The notes below the pieces were generated by a model. The model was not told the DNA's origin. It saw nothing but the letters and a program-made list of their open reading frames with translations, and searched no databases. A program made the position numbers and the translations under genes. From Branchiostoma floridae (taxonomy: Eukaryota; Chordata; Leptocardii; Amphioxiformes; Branchiostomatidae): a stretch of 64,000 bases of DNA. The stretch covers positions 8,207,402-8,271,401 of the forward strand of contig NC_049985.1 of assembly GCF_000003815.2 (NCBI RefSeq), written 5' to 3'. Of this stretch, positions 5,413 to 63,055 are shown piece after piece (the stretch's first letter is position 1; the number at the start of each line of letters is the position of its first letter).

Positions 5413-5421
5413 CCGCTCTCT
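5413..5421. repeat. Left 9 bp target-site duplication of the MULE
   Basis: CCGCTCTCT lies immediately outside the left terminal inverted repeat and is repeated exactly at 16179-16187, immediately outside the right one. Nine-bp duplications are the hallmark of Mutator-like transposition. Confidence 0.93.
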
Positions 5422-5472
5422 GGTGGCGGATAGATCCTATACGGGATTTCATGTTCACCGGAAGTGATGTAA
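5422..5472 (+). repeat. MULE left terminal inverted repeat
   Basis: 51 bp, inverted match to 16128-16178 with a single mismatch. Its inner part reads ACCGGAAGTGATGTAA: an ETS-type core followed by a CRE-like half, with T where the right copy has C. Confidence 0.93.
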
Positions 5473-5802
5473 GGGCCGCAGTGCGCATGACCACAGACTT
5501 GGCTGAAACCAGAAACATGGTGAATATGTTACTGCGAAGACTCAAACACTTTGTGTGATTCGCTCGGGCAAGGAGGCTCGGGCAACCACCGGTGTACTAC
5601 ATGTTAGACAGCATGTTTCATTTAACTGCTACAGGCCAGGTGAGACACTGTACAGGTCAGTAAGGTGTGTTATCTTTTCATTGTTGTTGTTGTTGTCCTC
5701 GTTAACGTCTATAATTTATTTCGCTAGACGTGGCCTCTTGGTGCTGAGTAACACATGGTTCGCTTTTGAGTCAATAGTCTCTCTTGGTATTTAACTTTTC
5801 AT
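5473..5802. other. MULE left subterminal region
   Basis: Unique sequence between the TIR and the tandem array. One isolated array-like unit (CAGGCCAGGTGAGACACTG) lies near 5631-5660. No exon is supported. Confidence 0.5.
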
Positions 5803-6272
5803 GCATGCCAAGTGAGACACTGTACAGGTGTGTAAAGTGTATTTCCATTGTCTACAAGTACAACCCAGGTCAGACCCTGTACATGTGGGTCCGTACATGT
5901 GTGTATTAAAGGGTTTTTCAATCGTCTACAGGCCAGGAAAGACACTGTAGAGGTAGCTAAGGTGTGTTTGAACAGTGTTCCATTGTCTACAGGCCAGGTG
6001 AGACTCTGTAGAGGTAGCTAAGGTGTGTTTGAACAGTGTTTCCATCGTCTACAGGCCTGGAAAGACACTGTAGAGGTAGCAAAGGGTGTGTTTGAACAGT
6101 GTTCCATTGTCTACAGGCCAGGTGAGACTCTGTACATGTGTGTAAGGTGTGTTTTATTGTCTACAGGTCAGGTGAGACTCTGTACAGGTGTGTAAGGTGT
6201 GTTTCAATTGTCTACAGGCCAGGTGAGACTCTGTACAGGTGTGTAAGGTGTGTTTCCATCGTCTACAGGCCA
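5803..6272 (+). repeat. Left subterminal tandem repeat array of the MULE
   Basis: Eight or so units of about 50-65 bp share the order CCAGGTGAGACTCTGTACAG, then GTGTGTAAGGTGTGTTT, then CCATTGTCTACAGG. Units at 5930-6110 carry an added GAACAGTGTT segment. The array stops abruptly at the first 88 bp direct repeat. The unit core resembles the array at the other end (13950-14641), in the same orientation on the plus strand. Confidence 0.85.
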
Positions 6273-6360
6273 AATTAATCTCACTCAGGATAACAAAGTC
6301 GGTAGAAGTTTGAGCAATTGACGTCTTTAATCAGGAAATAAAGACATCACAGGCCAAGTC
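6273..6360 (+). repeat. 88 bp direct repeat, copy 1 (with hairpin)
   Basis: Starts AATTAATCTCACTCAGGATA and matches 7163-7250 with about five differences. Contains a short palindrome, GACGTCTTTA facing TAAAGACATC around an 8-9 nt loop. Confidence 0.85.
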
Positions 6361-7162
6361 CAACTACTTGGCAACACCTTAAGAAATATTGCAGACTGCA
6401 GTGTAAGCGAAAAAAGGATTGTCCGGTTTAACAATACTGGACGTCTTCTATTGGACTCATGAAATAAGTGCATGGCGGTATAACAAAGTTACTGACACCT
6501 AAATTTAACTATGAATCATGCTCTTGTCAAACAACGGAGAGGAAATCGGCACGATGTTGCCGGAATAATATCTTGTTTATCATAACATTTTGAACTGGAC
6601 AGTTATCGACTGTAACTCTTTGATTCTCAGAGGAATTGCATGGAAAGTTTGATAACGTCAACTACATATGTAACTTGCAATTTGGTACTACATGTATAAC
6701 ACAACTAAAGCTGCCAAGTGAATTTCGGGCAGCGAGAGTCACTCCTTCTGGAATGTAACGCTGAGCCGCAACTTATTGTGCTCCTACGGCAAGTTGAGTC
6801 GAACCGTGCTTGCTTAACTAACATACCTACATGTATATGACAAGTTCATGGGTCAAAGTTCATATAACAGTTCTTCGGCTGCGGTTGATTACGAGAATGC
6901 ATGCACTGTGTTCTATCAACAATAAGTGCTAGAGTCCTTCGGTTTTGGGTGAACAAGAGTTGGGTGATCGACAGCTTGTAAGGTCTTTTGACAGTTTCTG
7001 TAAATTCAAGTTCAGAATGTTTATACAATTCTTTAGCTGCGGGGGAGGGATGGTGGTGAAGCTGTCTCTCGTTCGAAGCTCTGTTGCCGCACTGCGCATG
7101 CCTGGTCATTAGTCACATGGCCAAATTCTTGAGGATAACGTCCCCGGGCCTTATCCTCTCAT
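6361..7162. other. Spacer between the two 88 bp direct repeats
   Basis: About 800 bp without a supported exon. Near the right end is a small inverted repeat, GAGGATAA (7131-7138) and TTATCCTC (7151-7158), around a CCCCGGG core. The short open frame at 6846-7109 on the minus strand has no recognisable domain. Confidence 0.5.
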
Positions 7163-7250
7163 AATTAATCTCACTCAGGATGACAAAGTCGGTAGAAGTT
7201 TGGACAATTGACGTCTTTAATCAGGAAATAAAGACATCACAGGCCAGGTC
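7163..7250 (+). repeat. 88 bp direct repeat, copy 2 (with hairpin)
   Basis: Second copy of the 6273-6360 repeat, including the same 10 bp-stem hairpin. It lies just downstream of the stop codon of the tyrosine-recombinase fragment in minus-strand sense, so it may be part of that element's 3' end. Confidence 0.85.
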
Positions 7251-7307
7251 GAGTGTAACGAGAAGCCCAAACTTGAAGATGGTAGATGGAGGTGTGTAGC
7301 ATCGGAA

Positions 7308-7646
7308 TTAGGTAATCCGGTGGCACAGCAGGGACCGTTGCGCCATGGTGAGTTGCAGGTAGAGGAGATCGGCGTCAGATTTCCAGTCTCCGTGGTGACG
7401 GCGAAGTTCGCGTGGAACCACGGCCTCAAAGGCCAGGGTGTAGCCTCCTCGACGCAAGTCATGTAGGGTGTGATACCGGGGTGGCAATCCTGCTTTGTTG
7501 ACCAAGCGCGCGAAGGCTTTGTCAAGGACTGAGCCGGTGAGCGGACGTAATGGGCGACGTGGTGTTGGGGGAAGCTGAAAAGCTGGAGAAGCGGGTCTGG
7601 CTGGAACGAGGCGAAGCATGTTGTTATACGCGAGCACGGGACAGAG
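7308..7646 (-). pseudogene. Tyrosine-recombinase (DIRS/Crypton-type) C-terminal exon fragment
   Basis: A 112-residue frame follows a splice-acceptor-like CTCGCAG at 7647 and ends in a stop. It starts LCPVLAYNNMLRL and contains HDLRRGG (the H-x-x-R pair of tyrosine recombinases) and GDWKSDADLLYLQL (the later Trp plus the candidate nucleophilic Tyr). This is the catalytic C-terminal half seen in DIRS-like retroelements, Cryptons and related animal genes. The first catalytic Arg and the N-terminal core-binding domain are absent, and no upstream exon was found before the MULE transposase stop 136 bp away. It is therefore best read as a truncated fragment captured by, or inserted in, the MULE. It could also be a 3' exon whose partners were lost. 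Confidence 0.7.
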
Positions 7647-7781
7647 CTGCGAGAATCAGAATGATACAATAACTAACATATGCAGTGTTTGGATCCTTTC
7701 TACTTCAGATGGTACAGTCCAGACAAGAGCTGTCCTACAGTAATCCGCTGCTGGTGTGCTCACCATACCGTATTCCTTTCA

Positions 7782-10700
7782 TTAGAGACCACATGAGAGA
7801 CCGGAACACTTAAGACAGACATATTCCCGGTTATTTGCTACAATGTCAGCAACATCACTGTTACTCAACTTGACACAGGCACAGTGGTACCATCCATCAC
7901 ATCTATCACACGAGATCATTTGTCCTGGCTTGTATAAGTTGCAGATGCAATATATTGTTAGCTGATAGCTGGTTTCCTTGATGTTGTTGTCTGGTGCGTT
8001 TCGTTGACTATGTGGGAACATGCTAATCGATTCTGTCGCAAGGCAGTTCTCCAAGTGCTGTCTCATTTGCGTTTGGTTGAACTGTACTGTGGATGGATCT
8101 ATTTCCTCGGCCAGAGCCGCAGCATTTGCGACTGCAAATAATCCACAGTCGTTACTGCCGTTCTGCTTCTGCACGCATTTGACAGTGACAGGGATTACTC
8201 CATCTTGCCCTTCAGCAAAACTGCCATACATTGTAGCTAGTTGCTTACGCAGCTCAGCATTCATAGATGGACTTAGGGAATCAAACACTGTCACACCGGT
8301 ACCCCCTCCAACGGTTGTAGACACAACCCAGTGTTGTCCGATGCTGTGGATTTGTATGCAATCATTTGGTGCTGGGATAGGGTCTTGTTGCTGACCTGCC
8401 TGCAGGACCACTGTATCCCGCAACCCATCTATGCATGGGTACTCCTTCTTGATGAGCCCCTGGGAACAGTTCATGTGCTTATCGTTAAGCCATTCATCTT
8501 GCTGCAAGAGCTTTCTGTCTTCTTCTGTCAACTGGATGTTGTTAATCTTAAGCCATTCCTCCTCATCCTTTTCCGTTGTTTCAGCATCCTCGATGTCTGC
8601 CACTACTGTTGTCTCCAGCTCTTCCTCGATGTCTGCCACTACTGTTGTCTCCAGCTCTTGCTCTTTCTCCATGTTATCATCCAGGCTGACATCGACCCAA
8701 AATGCAGACTTCATCATATCTGCATGATGGCCAACCCTCTTTGAGTAAGGATGTTTTGGAGGCAGAGTTGGTAGTGCATGGCTATCAGTCATCTTCCTTT
8801 TCCTTTTTTGGGGGCTTCTGACGCGGAAGGTTCCATCATGTGCTGAGTGTCCCACCATTTCCTCCAACAAGCATGATAGTTGCTCCTTCATGGACGTGAG
8901 GTAGAGTTCATCCTGAAGATTGTACGTTATGTTTGTCATTTCTTTCAGCAGGCTAGCACATTCCCTCTGCAGTTGTTTACTTCTTTTCGGCTTGCTTACA
9001 GGGAGCTCACCATGTACTGCTGGTGATGGTGTGGGAGAAGGTGGTGGTGGATCTGCTGTGGATGTTAATGATGGACTGCTGCTGTCATCCGTCTCACTTG
9101 AAGTACAGGTGCTTGAACTTGAAGATAGCAGTGTACTGTCTAAGGAGAAGAGGGGATTGTCCCTATATACTGCTGACAGCTTCTCCCAGCCCCATTCTTG
9201 TTGTAGGTTGAAGACTGAGCAGAAATGTTTACACGGCAACTTGTGCTTTAACCAATCTCTGCATGTGCAGGATGGCATGTTGGTAGATGTTGCTCCAAAG
9301 TTGACTGTGTGTTGTTGGCTGCGCTTGCTGCTGCTCTTGACTTGAAAGATTCCCGGGCCAATGGAGACAATGTCGTCTTGCTCGTAGGACTGGGCTTCTT
9401 GCAACCTTGCCATGATATGCAATACAACTCCTCTTGGCCTGTCCTTAAGGTAGGTGGGTAGGTCGGTATGATATTTTCGATAGCACGAGCTGTATGCCAC
9501 GTTCAGTTGAATGTACCTTGAATGATAAAAGAAAGAACAGAATAAATCGCAAGGAAATGGACTCTAACATTGAAGACAAAAGTAAACTACACATGTAAAC
9601 ACATAATTGGCTATGCAGGTCCACCATAAATTTATTATGAAGGGGTATCTAAATGTTGTTCAATGAATAACATCAGAATACTAAGATTTCAGTAACTATG
9701 AATTAAGATAAAGAATATTGATTAAAAAAATTACATTGTTTTGACCAACTGACTTAAGTATGATATGCCAATTATATATTAAGAAAGAAGAAAGAAATTT
9801 TACATTTTTACAAATTACACATGTACATGTCCGTGCAAGATAATATTAAGATTTGGACTTCAGCTCACTTTCGATATGCTGTCGCCAAGAAGTCTGTTAC
9901 GACTACTGTGATCATCTCGGTGAGGCTTCTCCTTTTACGGCCATCAAGGTGGGAGTATTTCAACGTCTCGTTTTGTCTCTCCACCCCGTTGTTGGTGTAA
10001 ATCGCCACCTTCAGATCTTCATCCTTGAAAGCTTGCACCCACCTCTATATGTGATTAAAAAGGGGGAAAAGAGTTACATCTTGTAAAAAGGATTTACACA
10101 ACAAGGCACAGGTATGTACAAAAGCCCATAAGAAACAGACCTTTATCATTCATGTGTCTCTTGGAGCGAAGACCAAAAAACCTACACAAAAAATCTCATC
10201 ATGAAAATCTCATCTTAACGATTAAGTTTATTGTAGCATGTACATCAGGCCAACTTGCATAAATTATATCTAATAGTGTTCAACTTTACTTAACCTTATA
10301 ATACAGCAAGGACGCTAATTAGGTCTTTATTTGCATAATCAATATTTTTATCTGCCTTGTTCCAATGTCAATAAGATTAAATGAGAAAGAAATATCCTAC
10401 ATGTACGAGTGTCATATCATGAAATACAGTAGATTTATTGATACGCACCTTAGTACATTTAAGCCACTTATTGGAGAACCATGCCAGCAGCCTCTCATTC
10501 TCCTTCCACACTTCTGATTCTCGAAGCAGGGACAGGCATCTCTCGTACTCTTCAGTTGTGCCAGCAGCTGCAATGTCCCTCAGAAGGTTAAGTACTGTGG
10601 CTTGCACGTGACTTACACCATGTTCTCTCTTGCGCACCCACTCCACCCATGCTTTTTCACGATGGAAGTCACACAGCAGTACCTTGGCATCTGCATGAAA

Positions 10701-13700
10701 TACAAGAGACACATATACGATTGGTAACATATATATATATGAACAGGACAAGACACTGCATGTACATATGTATGTCGGCAAACATTTGCTTTGCCAGCAT
10801 TACCCTAATTTGCTACCAATCTGTGTACAATTCCTGATGAGTATACCAGGGTCCCCATATTATCAGCAAGCAGTTGATATGTGACAAGACAGTCATAAAC
10901 CAATGAATACATGCATTGAAAAGTTTGAGTTGAGTTTCACCTTGGAACTCTTCTTCGAGGGCACCAATTTCTGCTTCACAGAAGTCCACCATGAAGTGGG
11001 AGGGGTTCCACTCTGGATTCCAGTCCTTGAAGACCTGGAGAGCTTCTCTGATGTCCACTGTCCTCTCTGTGTGTGGGACAAAGACTCCAACAACGGTGTA
11101 GCACACATTTGTTCTTACACACAGAAAGAAAAGTGGGAGATCGTAACGACATGTGCGGTATGTCGCATCGAGCAGACACATTTGCTGGCCATACAAAAGT
11201 AATAATCTCTGCTGCCATGCTGTTTGATAACAGAAGAGGACGTTGGTCTTCGTACCATCCTCAAGGACTTCACTCGGGCGAAACTTGACCTTGCAGTCCT
11301 CTTGCCGCGCCCATCTTGTGGACAGAATCTGGAAATAGAATCATGGAAGGAACATCACTGCATGTGGGAGACTGACCAAACTTAAGGGAAGGTTTTGCCT
11401 TTTCTTACAATTAGGATGTCTGCAGGAACCTGGTCTATTATATTGCGATAATAAGACCAGATGTTACTCACGGACTGTATCATTTTGCTCATTACCTGCA
11501 GGTTGGCTTGGTCCTGTGATGAATTCCTTGTTGAATCATTTACTTTCGCCATAATGTTCCACAGGTCTCTGTCAGTCGGGTAGTACTTCCGTTGTGTTGT
11601 AGGAGGAGGAGTCTCGCCTCTGAACAGCTCATTGGTGATGAATGTGCTCAGGTGGTGCTTTACCTCACTCACTGTTTTGGCACCACCCTCGGTGATCTTT
11701 TCCACCTGTTGTCTGATTCTGTCATCCACCGGCTGACTCAATTCAGCAACCTATAGAAAAATGGATTTTGACAGTTTTGATACTTTGTCTTATTACATCT
11801 CACTCCCTATACCATGCAGAGGGAAGTGGATGGTTATCTTTGACTTGTAATTCAAGATTTTGTATACATACCATTCCAACAGTTGGGTGGTTTCTATGGT
11901 CGTCCATGGCTGGGAAGCGTGTTCGATATTCCCAAACGGCCTTAACCGCTGACGGATCTTTTGCTAGTGCCTCCTTCAGGGCTTTGGAAACTTTATCTTT
12001 TGCTGATTGTTTGTCCTCTTCAATCTGAAAAATTACACAGGCATTAACAGCTGCAATGTGTCAATTGTGTCATACAATTTTAAAATACAAAATGTGTAGA
12101 CCTCATCTTAGCAAAGAAGGCTACCGTATTTTAGTGTTTCCTTGTGCAACCAGTGACACTGATTCATGATTTATGTCCAAAAATGTTCGCCTTATCCAAT
12201 GGTGCAAGTATAAAATTACCTTCATTTGTCATTACCTTCAAAACTGGGGTCTCTGTGTTATTCATCAAGTCATGCAAAGTATCCTGCTGGATTTTGATCT
12301 CCTGCAGAGTTTTGCATGATACATGCAGGACTTCGCATGAGACAAATTTAATCGAGGCTTTCTTTAATTGAGACTTCTCAAGTTATGCTGTTATCCTTCA
12401 TCTCAATAAATATTTGGACTTTGGGTTATAACATCATCATCATTGTTCAGTCATGCTGGTTGCACAGATTAATAATTTAATGTCTCCTTAATGGCAAAAG
12501 ACAGGTATTGAAGTTTTTATATACCTTGAAATCAGGAAATCTGATGAGATAATGAACTGTGAACTTGACAGGACAGTCCATCTTTTTGGTATCTTGCACC
12601 TGGCGATGTCTTCTCAAAAAACCATGGTCTTCTAGCTATTAAAGGTACAGAGAGACATAGAAGTACGTGTTACTGTACATCACAGTTAAACAAAACAGCA
12701 TTACACTTTATCTCAAACTTTCACCTTTGATATGGACTGCAGAAAATGTAACTAATTCTGTTCATGCCCTTTTCTTTGTGTTGAAATGTTACCTACATTT
12801 TTAAGTATGGAAGTATTGGAACATTATTAGTATTACGATTTCCAACTAAAAATATATTTTACTCATTATTTATGCAAATTACTTTCCACTAATTAGTACT
12901 TTGAGGTGCTTACATTATAATATCTTTCAACTTTATGTCAAGTTCATTTGTAAAATAACATACTGCTTGTTGCTGTTTCTCAGCCTTCCTCTTGTCTTTC
13001 TTAGGCTTGTCCCTGTCTTCTCCCTGATGACAGCCATACACCGCCTTGCTCACAAGTTGGAATGGAACGCCATCAAATTCCACATACTTCAGCTTCCAGT
13101 TGATGCTCTTCTTAGCTGAGGGTTGCACATCTGTAGTGAAATGTCATAACAAGTATATACTTGGTAAGCTGTGTATTGTTTATGCAAGCCAATCAGATGA
13201 AATTTTCCATTATGGTTTTCACAGAAATGACAGTTTGAAGCCAGGAGCAGTTGTGGAAGATGACACTTGTAGGTACATAAGTATTTAGTTAAATTTGGCC
13301 AGTAACTTAAAAACTAGACAAAACTACGACTTGCATCTTCCACGTTAAATCATATTCGAAATTGAATCAACGTTTCTAAATATATTTGCCGTTACAAAGC
13401 GGATATCTGCACATGGAAACAGTTTCATAGGAACCTATGTTCTTTATGTACAGGCCATTGAAAAAATAAACATCTAGTGTCATAACTAATGCAAAATAAC
13501 AGTTTTAATTCTTTATGTTAATGTGAACTGTTTTCCCTTACAGATGCCAACGTCGATTGGATCCTGTCTGTGAATATGCATGAAATGTGTTACAAATTTC
13601 AATCAGTGAACTGATGGATCTTGGTGTTTGTCCATCATCGTGCCATGGGTCAGCAGTTTCATCTTGTCAAGGCAACATAGAGTCCGGCACTGAGGATTAG

Positions 13701-16043
13701 TGTCGAGTGAACTGAAGACAATTTCATGACTCTTAACCCAATCACCGCCACCTAAGATTACAATTGGACCTACACAACTGCACGTATTCTGGACGTGATC
13801 TTACAGTCACAGAGCACCATGAAGTGGTCTAAACTTGTTGCCATGGTTGTTGAGAAGAGCAGTAGCAGACTGTACTTGCTACAAACCCTAGGCCTCTGTA
13901 AATGAAGACTGGACTCGTGCGTCCTGGTATTATGGTTAATTGTCTTTGTTTAGCCAGATGCTTGCCAGGTAAGGACAACTGAGACCAGGTGAGGCACCTT
14001 GCAGGTAAGACAGGTGTGTTTTCTTTGACTAAAGATAAGGTGAGGCCAGGTGAGGCACCTTGCAGGTAAGACAGGTGTATTTTCTTTGACCAGGGACAAG
14101 GTGAGGCCAGGTGAGGCACCTTACAGGTAAGACAGGTGTGTTTTCTTTGACTATGGACAATGTGAGACCAGGTGAGACACCTTACATGTATGGCAGGTGT
14201 GTTTTCTTTGACTATGGACAAGGTGAGACCAGGTGAGACACCTTACATGTATGGCAGGTGTGTTTTCTTGGTCTAGGGACAAGGTGAGGCCAGGTGAGGC
14301 ACCTTACAGGTAAGACAGGTGTGTTTTTCTTGACTAGAGACAAGGTGAGGCACCTTGCAGGTAAGACATGTGTATTTCTTTGACTAGGGACAAGGTGAGG
14401 CCAGGTGAGGCACCTTACAGGTAAGACAGGTGTGTTTTTCTTGACTAGAGACAAGGTGAGGCACCTTGCAGGTAAGACATGTGTATTTCTTTGACTAGGG
14501 ACAAGGTGAGGCCAGGTGAGGCACCTTACAGGTAAGACAGGTGTGTTTTTCTTGACTAGAGACAAGGTGAGGCACCTTGCAGGTAAGACAGGTGTATTTT
14601 CTTTGACTAGGGACAAGGTGATGCCAGGTGAGGCACCTTACAATGATATTTTCTGCAATTGACAAGGAAAAGAAGACTATAACATCTTAAATATAATTAT
14701 CACAACCTTAGCATGAATCTGCAATGCCATAGTAAGGGTTGGAATGTACCCTTACTAGCACCCTTAAATGTTTTACTAGTGGTTATTTGGGGTAATTAAG
14801 ATGATGGACAGGTGTATGTTCTGTATGTGGATTCATCTGTGCTCCAGCAGTTGATCTTACCTGAGACGACATTGACATCATTGCCCGAAACAGAATACCA
14901 GTATGTTTTATATCATGTACATGTCTATAGGGCTTTTTTTAAGGACTGTAGATGCAGAACGCAGTGTATGATGATGATGATGATGTACATGTATTAAGTG
15001 TTGTGTAAAGCATGGTAAGATATGACAAAACCAAGTAGTTTTTCCATGACCAGATTGTTCTGTACTTTACAGTATAGGTCAGACACAAGATCCATAGAGC
15101 AAGGGATGTGTTCATTTAATTGTTTTTATTCACATGTGTAAGAACGAAATGGACAACAGAAAGTAGATGTGAAGTTGGTTTGTATTAATAAAGAGAATCT
15201 ACCTGTGCAATGAATAAAAGTATGGACAATATCAAATTTGTTACAGTTTGGTGGATTTGTGTGGTTGTTTGGGAATATAGAGTAAAAAAAAAACGTGGTG
15301 GAATAATGTTCTGTAAATACTGTGGTGCAAGACCATTATTTTCCAAAATTGGATCATTCATTATTTTCTAGAATTGGAAGTTTGCATTTCAAGTTGGAGA
15401 AGGAATAATCCAGCATAGCAGTATGTCAATAAAGTGGCAGGGGGTATATTTTGCAAAATACTAATGGCAAGGTTGTGTGAATGAGAAAAAAATAACTTTC
15501 CGTGGCAGTTCTTTTATATAAGTAATCAGAATCATCAGTTACAGGTTATGTCTGCAGGAGTTCTTCAGTTATAGACCGGTTTTATCTTCTCAAGTTACTT
15601 AATTAATTAGGTCCTGATGACAGACCATGTGACCTTGTAATACTGATAGGGAGTCCGACCTAAAACAATGAGCAAAATAACAGTTGTAACTTGGAATGTC
15701 AGGACAAAGCAGTATATATCTGTTAATTCATATTGACTTGTTAAAAAGGTACATCCTCACAAATGCTATTGTGTTGAAGTTTGAACATTACGTAATACTC
15801 TCCAAACCTCTGCTTGGCGAGCCACTCAATTCGCGCGAAAACAGACGACAGAAAGTACTATGACAACTCACTCTTTTCATCGAAATTGGCGCTGAGTTTC
15901 TGGAGCTTGATGTATGTGGAACCCGTCTCTTCTTGAACTTTCAAACGAGTTCTTTCAAACTCCTCCAAAGTATTGAAGGAAACTTCGGGATTTCTGTCAT
16001 GACAACTAGTTGCCGGCGGCCCCGGGGCTTCATTGCCAGCCAT
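7782..16043 (-). CDS. MULE transposase fused to SWIM, Ulp1-type protease and PHD finger (10 exons, ~1183 aa)
   Basis: Exons: 15872-16043, 12964-13130, 12525-12635, 12236-12301, 11872-12024, 11409-11750, 10941-11328, 10449-10690, 9869-10044, 7782-9516. All junctions are GT-AG and keep phase. The total is 3552 nt without an internal stop. The N-terminus looks like a zinc-binding DNA-binding region (Cys91, Cys134, His215, His218). The transposase core has DATYRT (Asp391), FMVDFCEAE (Asp452), the C/H motif CDFHREKAW and NNGVERQNE (probable catalytic Glu569). A SWIM finger follows (Cys689, Cys691, Cys701, His703). After a Ser/Pro-rich linker comes a C48/Ulp1-like domain with His1001, Asp1018 and Cys1063 (HWVVST, VFDSL, NDCGLF). 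A C4HC3 PHD finger ends the protein (about 1129-1176). It would act in the nucleus: DNA cutting and joining, SUMO-type peptidase activity and histone-tail binding are inferred from families. Exon 1 is linked by phase and family resemblance only. Confidence 0.88.
8575..8670 (-). repeat. In-frame 36 bp tandem duplication in the transposase linker
   Basis: The acidic linker before the Ulp1 domain repeats ELETTVVADIE twice in a row. The DNA copies are almost identical, so this is a recent slippage duplication that keeps frame. Confidence 0.75.
13131..13949. other. Transposase intron 1, part adjoining exon 2
   Basis: Part of the 2.7 kb first intron (13131-15871) of the minus-strand transposase gene. 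No additional exon recognised here. Confidence 0.5.
13950..14641 (+). repeat. Right subterminal tandem repeat array of the MULE (in transposase intron 1)
   Basis: About eleven units built from GGACAAGGTGAGGCCAGGTG, AGGCACCTTACAGGTAAG and ACAGGTGTGTTTTCTTTGACT. From about 14275 the units form a higher-order repeat of 112 bp (starts near 14275, 14387 and 14499) alternating a long and a short unit. On the plus strand the units repeat CAGGTAAG and CAGGTGAG, perfect donor-like words, but the gene here runs on the other strand. The frames open across the array are repeat artefacts. Confidence 0.88.
14642..15871. other. Transposase intron 1, part adjoining exon 1
   Basis: AT-rich intronic sequence with a short GAT run near 14970. 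No exon, RNA gene or nested element with clear ends was seen. Confidence 0.5.
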
Positions 16044-16127
16044 TGTATATAGTACGGTACCGGCGGGTTGACAAGTCTTTAATCACGTGACGCTACGCCG
16101 GGGTGTAATTAACCCTCAACCCCGCCG

Positions 16128-16143
16128 TTACGTCACTTCCGGT
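16128..16143. promoter_or_regulatory. ETS-CRE-like composite site inside the right MULE TIR
   Basis: On the minus strand this reads ACCGGAAGTGACGTAA. CCGGAAGT is an ETS/GABP-type core and TGACGTAA a CREB/ATF-type site; the close pairing is known from TATA-less bidirectional promoters. It is suitably placed to drive transposase exon 1 inward and could affect UFM1 outward. Binding is inferred only. Confidence 0.5.
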
Positions 16144-16178
16144 GAACATGAAATCCCGTATAGGATCTATCCGCCACC
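16128..16178 (-). repeat. MULE right terminal inverted repeat
   Basis: 51 bp, inverted partner of 5422-5472. Read inward it contains ACCGGAAGTGACGTAA, an ETS core fused to a CRE-like TGACGTAA. Its inner edge is 84 bp upstream of the transposase ATG (16043). Confidence 0.93.
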
Positions 16179-16187
16179 CCGCTCTCT
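16179..16187. repeat. Right 9 bp target-site duplication of the MULE
   Basis: CCGCTCTCT, identical to 5413-5421. The pre-insertion site is reconstructed by joining 5421 to 16188. Confidence 0.93.
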
Positions 16188-16318
16188 CTCGTCTGCAAAT
16201 CGATCGTCTTTTTAAAGTCTCGCAAATCACGAGATCTCGCGTTACGCGTGATTTCATTCTGCACATGCGCACTGTCAGTCGTACACGAATACTTCCGGTT
16301 TCTACACAGCTGGGAATC
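16188..16318 (+). promoter_or_regulatory. UFM1 proximal promoter / 5' UTR (host side)
   Basis: This 131 bp between the MULE duplication and the UFM1 ATG contains TCTCGCG, CACATGCGCAC (NRF1-like) and ACTTCCGG (ETS-like). All are typical of TATA-less housekeeping promoters. There is no clear TATA box. Transcript start is not determined. Confidence 0.55.
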
Positions 16319-18552
<2,234 letters not shown>

Positions 18553-45707: not shown

Positions 45708-46707
45708 GTAAGTAACGATTCAATCATTGTTGGCTCATAAAACTGGTTAATGTAGTCAATTAAGTGCTGTGCTAAGAGACGTCAGGTGCAAACTGGTCCT
45801 AATATTCACAATAGAAATCCCGGCTGGTCTATAAACGGCTGGTTGCTCTGTGATCGTGAAACGCTTTACAGTCTAAAGATAAACTTGGCTAGGTATGTTT
45901 CACTGAGATTAAATCATATCCATGAAAATAACCATGCTGCGAATCAGATTTATTCATACGATGCTATTCAAGACTGCAGTGATATTTGTAGGGTATCTTG
46001 TGTTTCAAAGCTTTTCATTCATCAGAATAAAAACATCCTATTGTAGGTATTCAATAATTCATCGCTCTATTGTTTGCTGATCGAATGGGAAGGTCACCCC
46101 TTTCGTTATGTATCCTTTCATCCAGGGTAATGTTGCCGGGGATTCCATTTCAATAGGTGAAAGGAGAAGACCCTCGCTTCCGACGAACGTCACCTGTGTG
46201 CTTGGTTTAGACAAAAAAACAGCATTGACCAACGTCTTTTCTCTGTACCGTTTTTTTTTTCAGACGAGGTAAAGATAAAGGTTCCATAGCTTTGTAGCGT
46301 ACAGGGCACGGTAAAGGCGAAGTCCTTCCCTCTCCTGGCTCCCGCTGCCTTTTACATCCCCGGCCGACGTCTGAACGCCTTTCCCAAGGACCCAGTCCAG
46401 CCGGAAGCCAGGAATCCGAAACTAAAGACTTCTTCATCTCGTATTCGCTAGCCAAGCTGCTCCGCCCGTATTCGACGTCAACCTCCATGCAACATTAGCT
46501 AACCCGCTTCTTCTGTACGCTATTTCTGTACGCTATTTAAGCCGTTCTGACTGTTATCTTTGTACTATATACATCCTGCAGGAGGAAGCCCTGATTGTGG
46601 TAGCAAATATCAACCGTGCCCAAGGGGTCGAGGGAAGGAAATCAAACTTCGTCATCAGAGATCACTGAGACGTCTGGGTCTGCCAGCCTCTGGGGGAGCT
46701 GAACAAC

Positions 46708-47223
46708 ATGGGCAACGTGTGTTCGGGGTGCTGCAGAAAATCAAAATACATCGCAAATAATTTGAAGGAGAAAGGTGTGGGAGGCAAGAGGGACAGATAC
46801 ATACCCTGCCCGGAGACTTTGAAAAGGAGAGACGTTGAACGTGTGGCTGCGGCCGGTGAGGAAAATGTGCAGGATTGCACTGAGGAGACGTTTTATAAGA
46901 ATGACGAAACAAGGCAAGTATACGACAATGGCAATGAGTATGAGGTGCGCGGAAACGATACGGATTCCAGTGCAAGCAGTACGGGCGAGGCAGAAATGTA
47001 CTTTGGAGAAGAGACTGAGGAAGAGGGGACTCCGGAAAGGGAGGGGACTCCGGAGAGAAAGTTCTCGGGCATCAAAATCGAATTCAAGGCGCGGGTAGAA
47101 AATAGTGGGAACCAGCTGACTGAAATGCTACAAGCACGTGGCATTCTAAAGACGAAAGAGGACGACATACATAAAGAACAAACTAGGTTTTGGGAGGACG
47201 GAGGCGGACTTACAACACTTTAA
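46708..47223 (+). CDS. 171 aa orphan protein with myristoylation/palmitoylation-type N-terminus
   Basis: A single open exon follows an acceptor at 46581, with a good start context (AACATGG). The protein begins MGNVCSGCCRKSK. Gly2 fits N-myristoylation, Cys5/Cys8/Cys9 fit palmitoylation and the following Lys/Arg fit membrane binding, so the product probably sits on the inner face of the plasma membrane. The rest is hydrophilic and acidic, with a short duplicated GTPERE/GTPERK motif near residue 108 and a C-terminal KIEFKARVENSGNQ to LTEMLQARGILK segment. I do not recognise a family. There are no transmembrane segments. The length, composition and splice context support a real gene, perhaps lineage-specific. 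Function is unknown. Confidence 0.65.
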   Translation: MGNVCSGCCRKSKYIANNLKEKGVGGKRDRYIPCPETLKRRDVERVAAAGEENVQDCTEETFYKNDETRQVYDNGNEYEVRGNDTDSSASSTGEAEMYFGEETEEEGTPEREGTPERKFSGIKIEFKARVENSGNQLTEMLQARGILKTKEDDIHKEQTRFWEDGGGLTTL

Positions 47224-62283: not shown

Positions 62284-63055
62284 ACTTAAGCTATCAGCAT
62301 ACCAAAATCATGATGATCCTTTGATCCATTCTTGACTTATTCTCTTTCAAAGTCTTTAAATACACCTCTTACTCTCTTCCCTCTTTCTCAGTTACATATG
62401 TGACAACTTTGATGAAAGTACTATAATGGAATGCAGTGGATTTATGAACTTTTCCTAATCAATTATGCAAATTAGCTGTTAACTTGCATAATAAGTATCA
62501 CATTATGTAAGTCTTCATTTAGGCTATCTACATGCCGAAAATCATGACGATCCGTCAACACGTTAATATTTTCTCATTAATTATGCAAATGAGATCATCA
62601 TTTGCATGATAAATATGTATTGACATTTCTCTCTTTCTCAGCTACATATGTGACAAGTTTTAAAGCCCTATCATGGAATGTAGTGAATTTATAAAATATC
62701 CTCATTAATTATGCAAATTAGCTGTTGATTTGCATAATTGTTATCTCATTATGTAGGTCTTCACTTACGCTACCTACATACAAAAAACATGATGATCCGT
62801 CAACATGTTCATATTTTCTCATTAATTATGCAAAAGAGGTCATCATTTGCATAATTGATATCTGTCGACATTTTTCTCCTTCCCAGCTACATATGTGACA
62901 AGTTTGAAAGTCCTATCATGGAATGTAGTGGATTTATAATTTTTCCTCATTAATTATGCAAATTAGCTGCTGATTTGCATAATTAGTATACCATTATGTA
63001 AGTCATCACTCATTCTATCTACATACCAAAAATCATGACGATCCGTCAACACGTT
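62284..63055 (+). repeat. Tandem repeat with period ~240 bp, rich in octamer motifs
   Basis: Three diverged units repeat this order: AAATCATGATGATCC, then TTTCTC or CTTTCTCAGCTACATATG, TGACAAGTTT, ATGGAATGTAGTGGATTTA, CTCATTAATTATGCAAATTA and GCTGTTGATTTGCATAAT. Each carries several ATGCAAAT/ATTTGCAT octamers (POU-type). The block runs directly into a retroelement-like tail. Confidence 0.8.

What the first reader, a model, noticed from the sequence alone, without database searches (positions are those of the whole stretch)
7782..16043. Open ten-exon MULE transposase fused to SWIM, SUMO-protease-like and PHD-finger domains
The sequence directly shows ten GT-AG exons in matching phase giving about 1183 codons without a stop. 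Established knowledge: MULE transposases carry a DDE core and often a SWIM finger, and some plant MULEs (the Kaonashi-type group) carry Ulp1-like domains. A single protein with all of these plus a terminal C4HC3 PHD finger is an unusual build. Inference: the protease could strip SUMO from silencing factors or chromatin, and the PHD finger could steer integration or anchor to modified histones. With all catalytic residues of the DDE (D391, D452, E569) and Ulp1 (H1001, D1018, C1063) sites present, the element may be active.
Basis: partly seen in the sequence, partly recalled or inferred. Interest (0 to 1): 0.92.

Follow-up and report, generated by a model that had tools for sequence, protein, structure and literature searches.

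The report
Jumping gene with CaRF-type DNA-binding domain

Summary
The gene lies in a complete 10,757-bp MULE, 5422-16178, with 55-nt inverted ends (96%) and a perfect 9-bp target-site duplication. MULE/RNase H, SWIM and PHD pass Pfam cut-offs; Ulp1 does not, but keeps H-D-Q-C, and its family profile finds SENP1. In five paralogous loci of the same genome 72 of 76 splice sites sit at the same place, so this is one gene. The Ulp1-PHD tail was exchanged between element families; another family has SENP1-like exons in its place. Mutator transposases with Ulp1 in lancelet and hydra, and an alignment of Ulp1 plus PHD in Mutator transposases, were published in 2010 (PMC2836005), so the build is a known kind. 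The CaRF link and protease swapping look new. Most likely: an autonomous cut-and-paste transposase; promoter targeting and local deSUMOylation are inferences.

The parts
5422..16178 (-). Complete Mutator-like element, 10,757 bp, gene on the minus strand
   Evidence: Inverted ends, perfect 9-bp target-site duplication, other copies of the ends in the genome
5413..5421 (.). Target-site duplication CCGCTCTCT, left copy
16179..16187 (.). Target-site duplication CCGCTCTCT, right copy
5422..5476 (+). Terminal inverted repeat at the 3' end of the gene, 55 nt, 96% complementary to the other
16124..16178 (-). Terminal inverted repeat at the 5' end of the gene
15872..16043 (-). Exon 1, no recognised domain; 93% identical in copy C17
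12964..13130 (-). Exon 2, start of CaRF-type domain
12525..12635 (-). Exon 3, CaRF-type domain
11872..12024 (-). Exon 4, CaRF-type domain
11496..11750 (-). Exon 5, end of CaRF-type domain (residues 60-273 in all)
10941..11328 (-). Exon 6, RNase H-like DDE core with D340 and D401
10449..10690 (-). Exon 7, DDE core and inserted region
9869..10044 (-). Exon 8, third catalytic residue E518
7782..9516 (-). Exon 9: SWIM (residues 625-657), Ulp1-like protease (H950, D967, Q1006, C1012), PHD finger (1078-1125), stop
8587..8663 (.). 36-bp tandem duplication at the border where the Ulp1-PHD cassette differs between copies
13973..14642 (.). Minisatellite in intron 1 (units of 51, 61 and 111 nt)
5632..6272 (.). 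Related minisatellite before the 3' end

Best explanation
Shown: this is a complete Mutator-like DNA transposon encoding one spliced transposase with the order CaRF-type DNA-binding domain, DDE catalytic core, SWIM finger, Ulp1-type protease, PHD finger. Inferred mechanism: the CaRF-type domain binds element DNA (which site is unknown), the DDE core cuts at the inverted ends and inserts with 9-bp staggered cuts, the PHD finger favours chromatin at active promoters by binding methylated histone H3, and the protease removes SUMO from repair or silencing proteins at the site. Inferred history: the catalytic half is stable while the C-terminal protease module is exchanged between element families. 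Inferred evolution: the host transcription factor CaRF and these transposases share a DNA-binding domain, most simply because CaRF was derived from such a transposase.
For: Ends and target-site duplication. Pfam: ALS2CR8 128.3 bits, ZSWIM1-3 RNase H 52.3, MULE 34.7, PHD 26.5, SWIM 25.2, all above cut-off. Splice sites: of 76 compared in five paralogous loci, 72 at the same place, 3 shifted by 3 or 6 nt in phase, 1 in a run of N. DDE, SWIM, Ulp1 and PHD residues kept in copies that cover them. Window against C17, residues 1-840 without exon 4: dN 0.033, dS 0.145, ratio 0.23 over 789 codons. Cassette exchange: C17 is 90-98% identical to the window in most 50-residue blocks up to 840 (60% in the block with its exon-4 frameshift, 86% in the next), then 50-65%; its tail is 87.5% identical in DNA over 882 columns to the C9 family. 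SENP1-like exons in the C2 and C1 family. PHD: nearest solved structures include DIDO1, BPTF, ASH1L, PHF2, PHF13 and PPS, several solved with H3K4 methyl peptides (titles). Five of nine insertion sites lie in the top 3.2% of CpG ratio of the background used.
Against: No RNA, protein or transposition data. Ulp1 is below the Pfam cut-off in the window. The fold model of the Ulp1-PHD part is poor (mean pLDDT 46.7) and its 50 listed Foldseek hits are PHD fingers, none below E 0.001 and no Ulp1. Some PHD relatives listed read H3K27me3. The published CaRF motif is not found in the inverted ends except with two mismatches, and cCaRE is not enriched in the element. Four of nine insertion sites are not CpG-rich. 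C9 (L010) and C271 copies lack matching duplications. The direction of CaRF descent is not shown.
Confidence: 0.8

Rival explanations
1. The gene is a domesticated host gene, not a mobile element: the transposase has been kept for a cellular role.
For: The reading frame is intact while the five compared paralogous loci show damage or gaps in C17, C9, C1 and C15; dN/dS 0.23 between copies.
Against: The gene still sits between matching inverted ends with a perfect target-site duplication, and copies with the same ends lie elsewhere, two of them with perfect duplications. Selection on the transposase is also expected for a mobile element.
Confidence: 0.08
2. The exons belong to several genes or the C-terminal protease and PHD are a neighbouring gene read through.
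For: No transcript was available; the tail has a history different from the core.
Against: SWIM, Ulp1 and PHD lie in one uninterrupted exon, and the same long exon occurs in C17 and C15 without a stop before the PHD finger.
Confidence: 0.03
3. The CaRF domain was captured by the transposon from a host CaRF gene rather than the reverse.
For: MULEs are known to pick up host sequence; CaRF-like host genes exist in this genome (C19, no transposase match nearby).
Against: The domain is present in element families that differ widely (46-62% identity in exons 2-3 to non-C17 copies), and the host-like C19 gene is split into exons differently, so no recent capture.
Confidence: 0.3
4. The protease cuts the transposase itself or processes ubiquitin-like modifiers other than SUMO.
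For: Ulp1-like enzymes include NEDD8 and bacterial proteases; SENP8 is among the matches.
Against: The family profile and the replacement module both match SENP1 best among proteases listed.
Confidence: 0.2

Closest known systems
Mutator (MuDR-type) elements with Ulp1 from lancelet and hydra (Repbase Reports 2008-2009, cited in PMC2836005; Repbase entries not seen)
   Same: Mutator transposase with Ulp1; the paper's figure 1e legend says Ulp1 and PHD are aligned for Ginger1 and Mutator transposases
   Different: Cannot be compared in sequence here; this may be one of those families. CaRF-type domain and cassette exchange are not mentioned in the passages seen
Rehavkus (PMC6446971, passages and section 6 part 1)
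   Same: PHD finger, 9-bp duplication, end length within 26-400 bp, minisatellite before the 3' end
   Different: Reported from Arthropoda and Annelida only; no Rehavkus protein was available to compare; SWIM, Ulp1 or CaRF domain not listed for it in the table
CaRF / ALS2CR8 (PMC2877716, passages)
   Same: DNA-binding domain (PF15299, E 5.9e-37 over 214 residues)
   Different: CaRF is described there as a transcription factor without known relatives; the host-like C19 locus shows no transposase match
Ginger1 transposons (PMC2836005)
   Same: C-terminal Ulp1, in one hydra family Ulp1 plus PHD
   Different: Ginger has a Gypsy-integrase-like core; here the core is MULE and no integrase model was reported
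Plant Kaonashi/KIU-type MULEs with ULP genes (recalled, and reference titles)
   Same: MULE plus Ulp1-like protease
   Different: Plant elements; not compared in sequence

Membership tests
Mutator-like elements (MULE) | MULE-type DDE transposase | tested here: met
   PF10551 34.7 bits against 27.6, PF21056 52.3 against 27.2; D340, D401, E518 present, and kept in the paralogs that cover them
Mutator-like elements (MULE) | Target-site duplication of 8-11 bp | tested here: met
   9 bp perfect; also 9 of 9 in C5 and C11 copies, 8 of 9 in C17 by eye
Mutator-like elements (MULE) | Terminal inverted repeats | tested here: met
   55 nt, 96%
Rehavkus | PHD finger, 9-bp duplication, minisatellite before 3' end | tested here: met
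   against the description
Rehavkus | Transposase groups with Rehavkus rather than other MULEs | not testable with these tools
   No Rehavkus sequence held
Ulp1/SENP peptidases (C48) | Score above the Pfam cut-off | tested here: not met
   13.7 bits whole protein, 19.4 bits alone, cut-off 20.7
Ulp1/SENP peptidases (C48) | Catalytic His-Asp-Cys and oxyanion Gln in order | tested here: met
   H950, D967, Q1006, C1012; kept in C17 and C15; family profile to SENP1 E 6.5e-5
Ulp1/SENP peptidases (C48) | Fold | tested here: inconclusive
   Models with mean pLDDT 33.0 and 46.7; Foldseek listed no Ulp1
CaRF/ALS2CR8 domain | PF15299 above cut-off | tested here: met
   128.3 bits against 28.9, model positions 3-233 of 235
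CaRF/ALS2CR8 domain | Binding to the CaRF motif | tested here: inconclusive
   Only motif counts possible: no full site in the inverted ends, cCaRE not enriched
PHD finger reading H3K4me3 | C4HC3 and aromatic cage | tested here: inconclusive
   PF00628 26.5 bits; Y1077 and W1097 align with DIDO1 and BPTF; that these form the cage is recalled; binding not testable
Ginger and KDZ transposons | Integrase-like or KDZ core | tested here: not met
   No such model among the eight Pfam families reported at E up to 10

The most novel reading that the evidence does not exclude
These elements are the living relatives of the transposons that gave animals the orphan transcription factor CaRF, whose DNA-binding domain was described as having no homology to known families. 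The same elements recruited SUMO proteases at least twice (an Ulp1-PHD cassette and a SENP1-type gene), so that deSUMOylation at the insertion site, at promoters marked by H3K4 methylation, is a selected part of their life cycle.
Probability: 0.35. Interest if true: 0.78.

Novelty: new member of a known kind. Interest (0 to 1): 0.52.

Why it matters
CaRF regulates neuronal genes and has been described as a transcription factor without relatives (PMC2877716, passages). Finding its domain as the front end of a Mutator-type transposase offers a concrete origin hypothesis that a rooted tree could decide. The exchange of Ulp1-PHD and SENP1-type modules behind one conserved catalytic half makes the long-suggested role of SUMO proteases in transposition testable by swapping or inactivating one domain. 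It also provides a MULE transposase in a genome that is probably a lancelet, where a survey (PMC6446971) reported finding none.

Tried and rejected
Motif test: CaRF sites as element-binding sites. cCaRE with up to 2 mismatches occurs 5 times in the element and 23 times outside, about equal per kb. chCaRE with up to 1 mismatch occurs 12 and 24 times; 8 of the 12 are one minisatellite unit. In the inverted ends only two-mismatch matches appear. Rejected as evidence for binding.

Viral contigs: two scans with the transposase, first 624 aa of the domain part and then exon 9, found no relative. NCBIfam found nothing for the four proteins given.

Structure: single-sequence model useless; six-row model weak; Foldseek gave PHD only. 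The second structure library was not available.

Ten-exon model: not adopted, not excluded.

Literature: 10 searches. For a CaRF-transposon link: ALS2CR8 with transposase gave 0 papers; calcium-response factor with transposase gave 1, a neuronal review seen as listing; calcium-responsive transcription factor with transposon gave 6, seen as listings; one search gave unrelated papers. One search was about CaRF itself. The library lacks most subscription journals and Repbase Reports, so absence there is weak.
Full report
What is there. The window gene on the minus strand has nine exons (16043-15872, 13130-12964, 12635-12525, 12024-11872, 11750-11496, 11328-10941, 10690-10449, 10044-9869, 9516-7782), GT-AG introns, matching phase and 1132 codons before the stop. 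Three open candidates exist, all in intron 1. Against the close copy C17, the first has indels that shift the frame, the second lies in the minisatellite, and the third (14028-13876) has gaps of 21 and 6 nt only; by eye its frame stays open. I leave it undecided.

The element. An inverted repeat of 55 nt (96%) lies at 5422-5476 and 16124-16178. Immediately outside both stands CCGCTCTCT (5413-5421 and 16179-16187), a perfect 9-bp duplication; the chance at a fixed place is about 3.8e-6 assuming equal base use. The gene starts 81 nt inside one end. In the same genome (513 Mb, 431 contigs) the first 32 nt of the end occur 14 times with up to 3 mismatches, and the pattern read backwards 0 times. 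Ten of the 14 form five pairs (the window, C5, C9, C11, C271); four are single (C1, C139, C17, C16). The other end of C17 was found by script. Duplications: perfect in C5 and C11, 8 of 9 in C17 by eye, none matching in C9 (L010) and C271; the left flank of C271 repeats the right flank of the single C1 copy. C5, C9, C11 and C139 copies show no transposase match (tblastn E up to 1e-3) and share the minisatellite.

Domains. Pfam on the 1132 residues: ALS2CR8 (CaRF) 60-273, E 5.9e-37; ZSWIM1-3 RNase H-like 306-420, 7e-14; MULE 338-425, 2.4e-8; SWIM 625-657, 1.2e-5; PHD 1078-1125, 6.5e-6; Peptidase_C48 948-1039, 0.057, below its cut-off. Alone, the protease part scores 19.4 bits against 20.7, and the next family is YopJ acetyltransferase at 15.6. 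In the PDB its real relatives by single sequence are Ulp1-like, SENP8 and SENP5 at E 0.024-0.057; the best-ranked match (2.8e-4) and another are designed repeat proteins, a compositional match. A profile of six rows from this genome finds SENP1 at E 6.5e-5 over positions 13-167 and the DIDO1 PHD at 4.1e-11.

One gene, shown by relatives. PF15299 gives 20 exon matches at 11 loci in this genome, PF21056 gives 16; counts are lower bounds. Five paralogous loci were read (C17, C9 at 5.2 Mb, C15, C1 at 26.25 Mb, C2). Of 76 splice sites compared, 72 lie at the predicted base, 3 are shifted by 3 or 6 nt with phase kept (C15 exon 2, C1 and C2 exon 3), and one (C15 exon 6) is in a run of N. Exon 1 was recovered only in C17 (whole) and in C271 and C1 at 34.3 Mb. 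Identity to the window by exon is 67-98% in C17 and about 40-79% in the others. Four of the five loci are damaged or incomplete: C17 exon 4 frameshift, C9 exon 9 frameshift, C1 a stop in exon 7, C15 N in exon 6; for C2 no stop was seen in exons 2-8. C14 is partial.

Selection and age. Window against C17, 789 codons of residues 1-840 without exon 4: dS 0.145, dN 0.033, ratio 0.23; introns 2-8 differ by 0.033-0.093. So the catalytic half was under constraint.

Exchange of the C-terminal module. C17 matches the window at 90-98% per 50-residue block up to residue 840, except 60% in the block with its frameshift and 86% in the next; past 840 it drops to 50-65%, with dS about 2. Its tail instead matches the C9 family: 87.5% of DNA over 882 columns, while the cores of C17 and C9 share 31-84% per block. 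The border falls at window residue about 844, next to a 36-bp duplication. In the C2 locus the same exon continues after the transposase part into a different sequence with NWVNDRV, and further downstream exon-like frames match SENP1 (E 4e-10) and SENP1/SENP2 (1.4e-7); two of four pieces pass the Pfam C48 cut-off (21.9 and 24.2 bits) and two show no C48. The twin C1 copy has the same SENP-like exon, 100% identical over 50 residues, about 21 kb downstream. That these exons are spliced to the transposase is not shown. A PHD finger was not found there by tblastn with the window, C17 and C15 tails.

How it probably works. Excision and insertion by the DDE core at the inverted ends: established for MULEs, here inferred from residues and duplication. 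DNA binding by the CaRF-type domain: inferred; the CaRF site is not enriched. PHD: nearest solved relatives are DIDO1, BPTF, ASH1L, PHF2 and others; several titles name H3K4me2/3 complexes, a few name H3K27me3. Insertion sites: relative to 3883 segments of 400 bp from the window and seven fetched loci, the flanks of window, C17, C5, C11 and C1 rank in the top 1.3-3.2% for CpG ratio; C271 8.3%, C9 25%, C16 50% and C139 57%. Three of nine sites have only one flank. The background is not a random genome sample. The left duplication lies about 52 bp upstream of an ATG of an open frame with a signal-peptide-like start (5361, minus); no Pfam family was found for it. This fits a taste for promoters but does not prove it.

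What is known. PMC2836005 (passages) states that Ulp1 is encoded in Mutator transposons of hydra and lancelet, gives a figure legend aligning Ulp1 and PHD of Ginger1 and Mutator transposases, and suggests a role of ubiquitin-like proteases in transposition. PMC6446971 (passages, section 6 part 1) found no Mutator transposase in Branchiostoma floridae and describes Rehavkus with PHD finger, 9-bp duplication and minisatellite, all seen here. PMC2877716 (passages) calls CaRF unique, with one gene per species including B. floridae and Nematostella. In this genome C19 carries a CaRF-like gene with different exon borders and without transposase match; C3 carries a 368-residue open frame with the second part of the domain.

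Verdict. A genuine, complete MULE of a kind already described, with a CaRF-type DNA-binding domain and an exchangeable SUMO-protease module that I did not find described in the searches made.

Noticed in passing
window 6273-7655: Nested repeat inside the element: 95% identical to C2:19741130-19742524, with 88-nt direct repeats at 6273-6360 and 7163-7250 and an open frame that looks like the end of a tyrosine recombinase (by eye; no Pfam hit).
   Followed up: partly
L052 (C13:20066900-20068500) and others: 29 other places in the genome (two-thirds on C13, C5 and C19) match the Ulp1-PHD part at 32-38% identity, mostly open frames of 259-423 residues without the transposase core matched; one was read and has Ulp1-like residues and a PHD-like finger below cut-off. 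Their host element is unknown.
   Followed up: partly
window 13973-14642 and 5632-6272: Two minisatellites of related units in the same orientation; related arrays also match in four TIR-only copies and near paralogs C1, C9, C14 and C15.
   Followed up: partly
C1:26254000-26270000 and C2:9779000-9794900: Twin loci, 96-99% identical over long stretches, each with inverted partial repeats of the transposase gene.
   Followed up: no
C3:30398191-30398643: CaRF-domain open frame of 368 residues (domain positions 66-232) without a transposase match in the fetched region.
   Followed up: partly
window 16188-16330: Right flank is CpG-rich and ends in a possible splice donor, as if the element had entered a promoter between two genes (by eye).
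   Followed up: no
window 62377-63055: Tandem repeat of a 245-bp unit, 2.7 copies.
   Followed up: no
window 46669-47223: Open frame of 184 residues containing MGNVCSGCC, no Pfam family above cut-off.
   Followed up: no
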